Assembly: GCA_003134995.1 (NCBI GenBank)
Contig: PLDC01000017.1
Location: forward strand, 62,001-126,000
From: Acidobacteriaceae bacterium
GTDB taxonomy: Bacteria; Acidobacteriota; Terriglobia; Terriglobales; Acidobacteriaceae
DNA: 64,000 bases
Direction of reading: 5' to 3'
In this document: positions 3,197 through 35,563 of the stretch, one piece after another
Position numbering within the stretch: position 1 is the stretch's first letter
Layout: every line of letters begins with the position of its first letter
Made by a program: the position numbers and the translations under genes
Notes under the pieces: model-generated
What the model was told of the DNA's origin: nothing
The model's input: only the letters and a program-made list of their open reading frames with translations
Database searches by the model: none

Positions 3197-4123
3197 GCCT
3201 TGGGATGGAACGGAATAACCGCACTTCAGCCCCGAAGGGGCGGCGTGAGAACTAGATTCGCGCCCTGCCGGTGGAATAAAGTTCGGTTCAGCCGCGAAGC
3301 GGTGCCAGAATGCAGCCCACGGCGTAAGCCGTGGGTAGAATGTGGGAGATTAGCAAGCCCCGGAAGGGGCGCAAGAGCAGTTCTCACCCACACTCGAGGA
3401 GGCGGCATGCGAAAGCCGGCACGGAAGTGCCGGGTTGAAGTGGTCAGACGGAACAAGTCCCGGAGCTCACTCCTCAGCCCTCGAGATCCTAACCTCATAC
3501 CCGCAGCGAAGTTTTGAACAGCCCCCTTGTGACATCTGACCTTGCGCCCCGATCCCGATTCATCTCATACTAAATCCAAATCTCTACCCGCTCTTTGACA
3601 ACCGAACCGGACCACCTAAGTCCCATCGATCCAGGATTTTACAGCTAAATTCTTTCGATTCAATATTTTAGCCGGATTCATTGTAGATCGAAGCCCGCAA
3701 GCTGCTGATTCAAAGGATTTTAGGGGCTTCGAGCCGCAAAATTTTTCATCGGATTTGGAGGCAACAACGGTAGCGGATCGTAGCAAGCTCCAACTATTTT
3801 TTGAGCCAGCAAATGTGAAAGTCAATCAGCCGCGAAGCATTGCAAGAATGCAGCCGAAGAGCGTAAGAGGACGTTACGAAACTCGATTGCGATTCCGCAA
3901 GGGGAACAATCCCTGCTCCAGTCGCGAAGCGACGGCATGTGAAAGCCCGGCACGGAAGTGCCGGGAAAGCGACAGTGGAACCAGCCGAGTCCGCTTCAGC
4001 GGACGGCACGAGTTTCGTAACCGCCTCTTGCGCTGCATTCTTGCCGCCGCTTCGCGGCCAAACCCGGAGATTCCATCCCACGGTGTGAAGCAGCTGGGAC
4101 GGTGGCGCTACCGTCCCGCTGCT
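3197..4123. repeat. Intergenic cluster of small GAA/GNAA-loop hairpins
   Basis: No convincing gene in 0.9 kb; open frames here are translations of repeats. The stretch contains at least nine perfect short hairpins, for example GCCCC-GAA-GGGGC (~3231), CCACGGC-GTAA-GCCGTGG (~3317), GCCCC-GGAA-GGGGC (~3356), CCGGCAC-GGAA-GTGCCGG (~3416), GTCGC-GAA-GCGAC (~3921) and CCCGGCAC-GGAA-GTGCCGGG (~3947). A unit around CCGCGAAGC and AGAATGCAGC occurs at ~3295 and ~3830 and inverted at ~4035-4058, so 3829-4058 is a roughly 230-bp inverted repeat with similar 60-nt arms. Positions 3520-3690 hold AT-rich unique sequence and an 18-21-nt match to 40.75 kb. Confidence 0.7.
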
Positions 4124-34990: not shown

Positions 34991-35089
34991 TTCGAGGTCC
35001 TGTTTCGGGACAGTTCCGAGTTCGAAATAACAGATTGTCGTCAGCTCTGGTTTGCTTGCACATACAATCGTTTCTGAGAGGCAATGTCT

Positions 35090-35182
35090 GGAGAGTGTTG
35101 CCAGTGGGTACTGGACGCTGTTTTTCACACCAGTCGAGTGGCTTAGTCAGCCACTAGGGTTCGACTCCCTCGCTCTCCGCCA
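35090..35182 (+). tRNA. Class II tRNA with 8/4 acceptor/T-stem (allo-tRNA or tRNA-Sec-like)
   Basis: 93 nt with encoded CCA. Acceptor stem GGAGAGTG/CGCTCTCC is 8 bp (35090-35097, 35171-35178), discriminator G, CCA at 35180-35182. T arm is AGGG-TTCGACT-CCCT: 4 bp, with the TTCGACT loop seen in E. coli selC. The D arm is CCAGT-GGGT-ACTGG with a 4-nt loop, as in selenocysteine tRNAs. A 7-bp variable arm AGTGGCT-TAGTC-AGCCACT is strong. The anticodon arm (~35116-35136) is irregular: 3 bp CTG/CAG closing a 10-nt loop TTTTTCACAC. A bulged fold gives a 7-nt loop with UUC; alignment to selC would give UCA. Canonical tRNAs have 7/5, canonical bacterial tRNA-Sec 8/5. Acidobacterial 8/4 tRNAs were described by Mukai and colleagues (2017, from memory). 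Confidence 0.75.
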
Positions 35183-35206
35183 GTCACTCGACGACATATT
35201 AATTGC

Positions 35207-35234
35207 TTGACAATGCTGCTGTTGGAGTTATGCT
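35207..35234 (+). promoter_or_regulatory. Sigma-70-type promoter
   Basis: TTGACA (35207-35212), 16-bp spacer, TATGCT (35229-35234). Near-consensus, with expected start around 35241. It drives either a short RNA ending at 35310 or, with read-through, the FecR-domain gene at 35564. Confidence 0.7.
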
Positions 35235-35240
35235 TGGGGT

Positions 35241-35310
35241 GTGTGAAGGACAGCGTCCGGTACTAGTTTTCTATCGTGGCCCCGACTGACTATCGGGGCC
35301 TCTGTATTTT
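35241..35310 (+). ncRNA. Candidate ~70-nt small RNA or attenuated leader
   Basis: Between the promoter and the hairpin GGCCCCGA-CTGACTA-TCGGGGCC (35278-35300) followed by TCTGTATTTT no open frame of note is seen. A small GGAC-AGC-GTCC hairpin lies in the 5' part. It is 25 nt beyond the unusual tRNA. No known RNA family recognised. Confidence 0.5.
35278..35310 (+). terminator. Intrinsic terminator-like hairpin
   Basis: 8-bp perfect GC-rich stem with 7-nt loop and a moderately T-rich tail TCTGTATTTT. Confidence 0.6.
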
Positions 35311-35563
35311 CGAGCCTCGCGGCTTTTGTAGGCCGCGAGTCTTGACTACCGCTGGCTGAAAACCACCACCTTGGCTCAGCGTAGCCACCGCCTCAAGCTT
35401 AACGTTTGTACTTCCATCAAGCGCCGCGCTTTTTCTCCTGAAAACAAAAGAGTTACCGAGCGTTTCCGCACCGCACTTTTGGCATGGCACTTGCTTTGAA
35501 CCATTGAGGCAATCCCTTAGTTTCAGTTTCAATCACTCTGCGACAGTTCGGGGGGAGGTAATT

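What the first reader, a model, noticed from the sequence alone, without database searches (positions are those of the whole stretch)
35090..35182. A tRNA-like gene with an 8/4 acceptor/T-stem and an irregular anticodon arm
Seen: 8-bp acceptor (GGAGAGTG/CGCTCTCC), 4-bp T stem (AGGG/CCCT) with the selC-type loop TTCGACT, short-loop D arm, a 7-bp variable arm and encoded GCCA. Ordinary tRNAs are 7/5 and bacterial tRNA-Sec is 8/5. The anticodon arm pairs only CTG/CAG cleanly, with UUC or UCA as competing readings. Known: 8/4 and 9/3 tRNAs were reported from acidobacteria as possible suppressor or regulatory RNAs. Inference: an allo-tRNA that may misread a codon or have left translation.
Basis: partly seen in the sequence, partly recalled or inferred. 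Interest (0 to 1): 0.88.

Follow-up and report, generated by a model that had tools for sequence, protein, structure and literature searches.

The report
tRNA-like gene with antisense RNA partner
A soil acidobacterium carries an oddly built tRNA-like gene followed by a tiny second gene whose predicted RNA is complementary to the tRNA's anticodon region; relatives keep this match while its sequence changes, so these bacteria seem to control an unusual tRNA with its own partner RNA.

Summary
The tRNA-like gene (TL, 35090-35179) is real: its 8-bp acceptor and 4-bp T stem are supported by compensatory changes across 57 homologues, and it resembles the published acidobacterial 8/4 allo-tRNAs. The "irregular" anticodon arm is a 5-bp stem with one extra C and a UUC loop; the encoded CCA is coincidental (4 of 68 relatives).

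About 60 nt after TL, behind a sigma70-like promoter and ending in a terminator, lies a predicted ~70-nt RNA whose 5' end (35241-35263) is complementary to TL's D-loop/anticodon region (20 Watson-Crick, 3 G-U). The layout recurs in three families of the class. The match holds while the sequence changes (237 double-sided changes, shuffled maximum 91). In 13 genomes with several cassettes, own partners beat strangers in 48 of 48 comparisons. Leader and trailer carry further complementary segments.

Best reading: an RNA pair in which a probably serine-accepting tRNA with a non-serine anticodon is silenced by a dedicated antisense RNA. Pairing is strongly supported; expression, silencing, charging and mistranslation or toxicity are inferred. 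My open-access searches showed no report of the partner; the primary allo-tRNA paper was unavailable.

The parts
35063..35068 (+). -10-like hexamer TACAAT, possible TL promoter (no convincing -35)
   Evidence: Sequence. Over 67 relatives a -10-like hexamer (>=5 of 6) lies here in 30, null rate 0.084; the full sigma70 score is not above chance (7.36 against 7.09).
35076..35088 (+). Leader segment GAGAGGCAATGTC just before TL, complementary (with G-U) to TL anticodon arm
   Evidence: Cognate leader-arm pairing 10.03 of 12 (67 loci) against 8.54 for non-cognate (2486 comparisons).
35090..35179 (+). TL: tRNA-like gene, 8/4 (or 9/4) acceptor/T, long variable arm, position 73 = G
   Evidence: Fold; covariation over 17 and 57 homologues; 103.9 bits with model R1 (the window copy is one of the model's sequences).
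35108..35130 (+). Region of TL (D loop to anticodon loop) complementary to the 5' end of the small RNA
   Evidence: 20 Watson-Crick and 3 G-U pairs with 35241-35263.
35124..35126 (+). Anticodon-like triplet UUC in the 7-nt loop UUUUCAC
   Evidence: Alignment with relatives.
35133..35142 (+). GTCGAGTGGC, 3' side of anticodon arm and 5' side of variable arm, complementary to the trailer
   Evidence: Sequence and trailer test.
35183..35192 (+). Trailer GTCACTCGAC, complementary to 35133-35142
   Evidence: Own trailer pairs 9 of 9 (G-U allowed) in 47 of 59 loci; non-cognate with a different segment 22 of 992.
35207..35234 (+). Predicted promoter of the small RNA, TTGACA (35207-35212), 16 nt, TATGCT (35229-35234)
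   Evidence: 52 of 60 relatives score >=8 of 12 here against 342 of 1200 shuffles; >=10 in 24 of 60 against 8 of 1200.
35240..35311 (+). Predicted antisense small RNA, about 70 nt
   Evidence: Promoter, complementary 5' end, non-conserved linker and terminator in orthologues. No transcript data.
35241..35263 (+). X: 5' end of the small RNA, antisense to TL 35108-35130
   Evidence: no other match with fewer than 3 mismatches in the own genome apart from TL itself.
35278..35310 (+). Terminator hairpin GGCCCCGA-CTGACTA-TCGGGGCC followed by a T-rich tract
   Evidence: Terminator-like hairpin after X in 49 of 60 relatives, shuffled rate 0.003.

Best explanation
The locus is a two-gene RNA cassette. 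Gene 1 is a Sec-like 8/4 (possibly 9/4) tRNA with a long variable arm and a non-serine anticodon (here UUC). Gene 2, about 60 nt downstream, makes a ~70-nt RNA from its own sigma70-like promoter; its first ~23 nt are antisense to the D loop, D-stem 3' strand, anticodon stem and anticodon loop of gene 1, and the rest is a linker and a terminator. Most likely the small RNA binds the tRNA (or its precursor), opens the D and anticodon arms and keeps it out of aminoacylation and translation; complementary leader and trailer would help to hold the precursor inactive. When small RNA falls short or TL is induced, free TL, probably charged with serine by SerRS, acts in translation as a missense tRNA (Ser at Glu codons for this copy). 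Shown: fold, complementarity, its co-evolution, orthogonality, promoter-like and terminator signals. Inferred: transcription, direction of control, charging, physiological effect.
For: TL fold conserved. X present: 31 of 37 same-genus TLs above 60 bits, taken without regard to X, match their own arm at >=12 of 17, and 3 of the 6 others match with gaps or wobble; non-cognate arms reach 12 in 136 of 2486, shuffles in 19 of 670. Co-evolution: 90.4% paired and 237 double-changed cells against a shuffled mean of 60.2, maximum 91. Inside the arm G-U outnumber A-C mismatches 27 to 11, p 0.014, as expected for RNA pairing. Own partner stronger in 48 of 48 within-genome comparisons in 13 genomes, mean -28.4 against -14.3 kcal/mol. 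In the own genome X's only matches with fewer than 3 mismatches are itself and TL; 3-mismatch sites are at control level. Promoter and terminator signals. Linker not conserved while X and terminator are, which suggests X is the small RNA's functional part. 33 tRNA-Sec/Ser-type hits examined have no such complement (best 11 of 14). Serine identity: the first six acceptor pairs and G73 equal those of the host tRNA-Ser(GCU), with a long variable arm; A3-U70 in 55 of 56 rows, G2-C71 in 55 of 56; that these are SerRS elements is recalled. No Ser or stop anticodon in 56 loops.
Against: No expression data. The TL promoter is weak by consensus. C33 in 17 of 56 and G33 in 1 and missing CCA (64 of 68) fit poorly with ordinary decoding. 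Three of 37 TLs (G036C211, G067C335, G067C83) have no recognisable X; G036C211 has Ns just downstream. The window's precursor with leader and trailer still folds as a cloverleaf, and only 26 of 67 precursors form the leader-arm helix by MFE. Allo-tRNAs of the UAU class were inactive in E. coli translation according to PMC7609411. 13 of the 68 cassettes were kept because X was seen, so 60 of 67 is not an unbiased rate; 31 of 37 is.
Confidence: 0.6

Rival explanations
1. TL is a sponge or antagonist of the small RNA: the small RNA is the effector on other mRNAs and TL titrates it.
For: The same pairing would result. TLs are probably not ordinary decoders: CCA in only 4 of 68, C33 in 17 of 56.
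Against: The linker of the small RNA is not conserved between orthologues and X has no further target above control level in the own genome. A sponge need not keep acceptor, D and T arms under strong covariation.
Confidence: 0.13
2. The pair is an autoregulatory or co-transcript switch: TL and small RNA are made as one transcript that folds back on itself, and mature TL or free X acts on the TL leader to set TL dose, without toxicity or mistranslation.
For: Leader and trailer are complementary as well. The window's read-through transcript folds into one long hairpin, -101.5 kcal/mol. [quoted passage not shown]
Against: The promoter-like signal with X starting about 5-6 nt after its -10 argues for an independent small RNA.
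Confidence: 0.15
3. DNA-level inverted repeats: arm, leader, trailer and X are kept alike by template switching or are recognition sites of a mobile element (a Y1/IS200-like transposase gene lies before one copy), without RNA function.
For: Inverted repeats can be homogenised. One of the copies has a Y1_Tnp gene upstream (G001C117).
Against: Promoter and terminator signals are kept. The G-U excess (27 to 11) fits RNA pairing. Cassettes sit at the same place in several species: ntrC in 4, before xdhC in 6, before hemC in several. No match in the phage or plasmid collections and none of an 18-mer in IMG/VR.
Confidence: 0.08
4. Decayed tRNA-Sec or tRNA-Ser copies with no function.
For: ARAGORN misses the gene; some relatives are truncated or decayed (L089, L265-L267).
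Against: 180 double-changed cells with 97.7% pairing. The genome has its own tRNA-Sec candidate of 72.3 bits, SelA and SelB matches.
Confidence: 0.02

Closest known systems
8/4 allo-tRNAs of Acidobacteria (Mukai et al. 2017, seen only through the review PMC7609411, section 7)
   Same: 8/4 acceptor/T stems, long variable arm, Sec-like D arm, non-serine anticodons with GUC and GCG frequent, same bacterial group, serine identity proposed.
   Different: A linked, co-varying antisense small RNA and complementary leader and trailer. The review section mentions no partner RNA; the primary paper could not be read.
Bacterial tRNA-Sec (Rfam RF01852)
   Same: 43.6 bits, long D stem with 4-nt loop, selC-like T loop.
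   Different: Below threshold, anticodon UUC rather than UCA, and the genome has a separate 72.3-bit tRNA-Sec candidate.
RNA-RNA (type VIII) toxin-antitoxin pairs such as SdsR/RyeA and CreTA (recalled)
   Same: Both partners RNA, neighbours, complementary, several orthogonal copies.
   Different: Toxicity not tested; the effector here would be a tRNA.
hok/sok type I systems (recalled)
   Same: Small antisense RNA from its own promoter; precursor with self-complementary ends.
   Different: No toxin ORF: the target is a structured tRNA-like RNA.
T-box riboswitches (recalled)
   Same: An RNA that reads a tRNA by pairing with its anticodon loop.
   Different: Here ~20 nt of antisense pairing; the downstream gene is often on the other strand, so X is not a general mRNA leader.

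Membership tests
Acidobacterial 8/4 allo-tRNA | 12-bp acceptor branch arranged 8/4 | tested here: met
   a 9th pair (-1:73) in 50 of 56 rows leaves 9/4 open.
Acidobacterial 8/4 allo-tRNA | Long variable arm and serine identity elements with a non-serine anticodon | tested here: met
   Variable arm and acceptor conserved; acceptor compared with two host tRNA-Ser; no Ser anticodon among 56 loops. Identity elements are recalled; charging not tested.
Acidobacterial 8/4 allo-tRNA | Accepts serine and inserts it in vivo | not testable with these tools
   Needs aminoacylation and reporter assays.
tRNA-Sec | Rfam gathering score and UCA anticodon | tested here: not met
   43.6 against 47 bits; UUC in the aligned loop.
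Antisense RNA / target RNA pair | Complementarity maintained by compensatory change | tested here: met
Antisense RNA / target RNA pair | Separate transcription of the antisense RNA | tested here: inconclusive
   Promoter and terminator signals only.
RNA toxin-antitoxin (type VIII) | One RNA is toxic and the other neutralises it | not testable with these tools
   No expression experiment possible.
RNA toxin-antitoxin (type VIII) | Orthogonal neighbouring pairs, several per genome | tested here: met
   48 of 48 cross comparisons in 13 genomes.

The most novel reading that the evidence does not exclude
A new class of RNA-only module: a deliberately mis-charged tRNA (serine at Glu, Asp, Arg, Gly or Leu codons) serves as a regulated mistranslation agent or toxin and is restrained by a cognate antisense RNA made next door. 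The pairs diversify in sequence and stay orthogonal within a genome, with TL leader and trailer as built-in locks.
Probability: 0.25. Interest if true: 0.95.

Novelty: new variant of a known kind. Interest (0 to 1): 0.77.

Why it matters
What allo-tRNAs are for is open. A partner RNA that co-evolves with the anticodon region gives a direct handle: it predicts that these tRNAs are normally kept silent and names the exact bases to mutate. If right, it would show dedicated antisense control of a tRNA and perhaps regulated mistranslation or a tRNA-based toxin. It also warns annotators: ARAGORN calls some copies tRNA-Glu, tRNA-Leu or tRNA-Thr.

Tried and rejected
Rejected: a decayed tRNA (covariation); a genuine tRNA-Sec; an mRNA leader as the general role of the small RNA, because the largest downstream ORF is often on the opposite strand (ORFs are mechanical), although hemC and xdhC groups have the gene on the same strand close by. 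The primary paper on allo-tRNAs is not held (ids recalled), so its text was not seen.

Set-up of the numbers: 68 cassettes = 37 same-genus TLs above 60 bits, 18 non-duplicate loci of the exact-pattern scan and 13 divergent ones kept because X was seen (one search lists them). Dropped before counting: three mid-score places without X (G000C23, G029C18, G014C162), L251 (cut by Ns, has X by eye), L254-L264 (tRNA-type) and L265-L267 (decayed or cut), L103, L115, L116 (contig ends), and nine class-level loci without X by eye (L268, L270, L273, L276, L278-L282). In one search, 36 cassettes were compared after three incomplete ones and three mid-score ones were left out; cognate mean -45.3 against -31.7 kcal/mol there, a comparison raised on both sides by conserved D-arm letters. 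One search failed on a script error and was rerun.

Full report
What is there. The reported gene is present as described. Acceptor 8 bp, T stem 4 bp, D stem 5 bp with the 4-nt loop GGGU, variable arm 7 bp, T loop UUCGACU. The anticodon arm aligns to relatives as a 5-bp stem with one extra C on its 3' side and the 7-nt loop UUUUCAC. ARAGORN does not call it and Rfam tRNA-Sec gives 43.6 bits against a threshold of 47.

It is a family. A BLAST search with the locus found close relatives in the same genus. A covariance model from 17 of them found 37 copies above 60 bits in 24 of 45 same-genus genomes; two more genomes (G003, G022) carry divergent copies with the same layout, making 26 of 45. The own genome has three: the window copy, one before xdhC (contig C6) and one before hemC (contig C22). 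Records with names that match this family are mostly Candidatus Sulfotelmatobacter and other Acidobacteriaceae/Terriglobales assemblies. In the wider class, copies with the partner were seen in three families: L269, L271, L272, L274, L277, L275 and L285-L288, the last with only 11 of 14 matching. These class and phylum scans sampled 299, 399 and 297 genomes, scored only 10-14 candidates per genome and used strict filters, so they undercount. Among hits from outside the class I examined 23 (L299-L314, L316-L322); none showed a complement above 11 of 14 and by eye they are tRNA-Sec or tRNA-Ser-type genes.

The fold is selected. Over 57 matches 97.7% of cells pair, 17 of 28 pairs change on both sides, 180 cells are double changes against 45.6 after shuffling, and sliding the partner by one column drops pairing to 39-45%. 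The alignment was fitted to the model's structure, which leans towards it; the independent MAFFT alignment of 17 gives the same result. Adding position -1 to 73 gives a further pair in 50 of 56 distinct rows.

The partner. Downstream of TL, after a TTGACA-N16-TATGCT promoter-like sequence, lies X, GTGTGAAGGACAGCGTCCGGTAC (35241-35263), complementary to TL 35108-35130 by 20 Watson-Crick and 3 G-U pairs. A terminator hairpin follows. Of 67 cassettes with enough flank, 60 match their own arm at 12 or more of 17 positions; the seven below are G010C363, G024C326b, G067C335, G036C211, G062C319, G067C83 and GC_L121. Four of these seven still align with gaps or wobble; G036C211, G067C335 and G067C83 do not. 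In the unbiased subset, 31 of 37 reach the threshold. Controls: arms paired with other loci's downstream regions (arms less than 10 of 17 alike) reach 12 in 136 of 2486, and shuffled downstream regions in 19 of 670.

Co-evolution and orthogonality. Over 54 distinct arm/X pairs 90.4% of positions pair with 237 double changes; dealing partners out anew gives 65.6% and 60.2, never above 69.9% and 91 in 500 shuffles. Inner positions show 27 G-U against 11 A-C mismatches, p 0.014, a modest sign that RNA pairing and not DNA identity is selected; transversions are 36. In the 13 genomes with two or more cassettes, the own partner was stronger in all 48 ordered comparisons. In the own genome X occurs once exactly, matches TL with 2 mismatches that are G-U in RNA, and has three 3-mismatch sites where the reversed control pattern has four matches in all.

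Signals. A sigma70-like pair scores 8 or more of 12 before X in 52 of 60 (shuffles 342 of 1200) and 10 or more in 24 of 60 (8 of 1200); in most of the 52 X begins about 1 to 7 nt after the -10. A terminator-like hairpin follows in 49 of 60, shuffled rate 0.003. In three ortholog groups X and terminator are kept while the linker changes. TL's own promoter is unclear: a -10-like hexamer in 30 of 67 (null 0.084) but no sigma70 score above chance.

Leader and trailer. The leader just before TL pairs with the own arm better than with others (10.03 against 8.54 of 12; 11 or 12 in 31 of 67 against 84 of 2486). The trailer pairs with the anticodon 3' side and variable arm at 9 of 9 in 47 of 59, against 22 of 992 for loci with a different segment. 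By minimum free energy 65 of 67 mature TLs keep at least 6 of 8 acceptor pairs, but only 32 of 67 precursors do; 26 form the leader-arm helix and 26 the trailer-arm helix. The window precursor itself still folds as a cloverleaf, but its read-through transcript with the small RNA folds as one long hairpin. This step is prediction only.

What TL may do. The anticodon loops have 7 nt in 56 of 57; A37 in 55 of 56, U33 in 38, C33 in 17, G33 in 1. Anticodon-like triplets: GUC 14, GCG 11, GCC 10, UUC 7, AUC 5, GAG 5, and CUC, GAU, GAC, CAG once each: none is a serine or stop anticodon. The acceptor resembles host tRNA-Ser genes: the first six pairs and G73 of the window copy equal those of tRNA-Ser(GCU). 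With the long variable arm this fits serine identity as proposed for allo-tRNAs (PMC7609411 section 7); that A3-U70, G2-C71 and the variable arm matter to SerRS is recalled. The genome has SelA and SelB matches and a separate tRNA-Sec candidate, so TL is not needed as tRNA-Sec, though SelA could touch its D arm. Against decoding stand C33 and missing CCA.

Context. Same-place groups: ntrC-type regulator (Sigma54_activat, Response_reg) before and a DUF6600 protein after the window copy; XdhC after another group; GlutR (hemA) before and porphobilinogen deaminase (hemC) after a third; sigma70 factor and chaperonin genes before others. Pfam was run on one representative of each of these; a gyrA-like neighbour was named by eye. 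The variety of neighbours, the orientation of downstream ORFs and the vertical inheritance argue for a stand-alone cassette.

Verdict. I hold the pairing as close to certain as sequence can make it, silencing of TL by the small RNA as likely, and mistranslation or toxicity as open.

Noticed in passing
window 3290-3335 and 3920-3965, minus strand: Two Acido-Lenti-1 RNAs (RF01687), 45.6 and 54.3 bits.
   Followed up: no
L088 (own genome C23:28102-28191) and L268, L270, L273, L280-L282: Another 8/4-like class, with encoded CCA in L088 but not in the others listed, mostly CUUAUAA-type loops (ARAGORN: tRNA-Ile UAU in L088) and no downstream complement by eye; in L088, L268 and L282 a short ORF that looks coiled-coil begins downstream. 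Probably the published allo-tRNA-UAU class.
   Followed up: partly
L265 (G030:C58:31479-32562): Decayed TL whose downstream RNA seems to carry two X segments in tandem before one terminator; the second resembles the X of another TL type.
   Followed up: no
G001C117 (L053): A Y1/IS200-like transposase gene (Y1_Tnp) ends 141 nt before the TL; 14 cassettes share a CTACTTTCGTGGG-like motif about 60 nt upstream.
   Followed up: partly
G000:C22 group (L087, L248-L250, L252, L253): Cassette between hemA and hemC, that is next to a tRNA-using enzyme of tetrapyrrole synthesis (Pfam for one representative, L252). Whether the cassette touches heme synthesis is unknown.
   Followed up: partly
L116, L118, L115: TLs with a different stretch inserted between variable arm and T arm (103-158 nt matches).
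   Followed up: no
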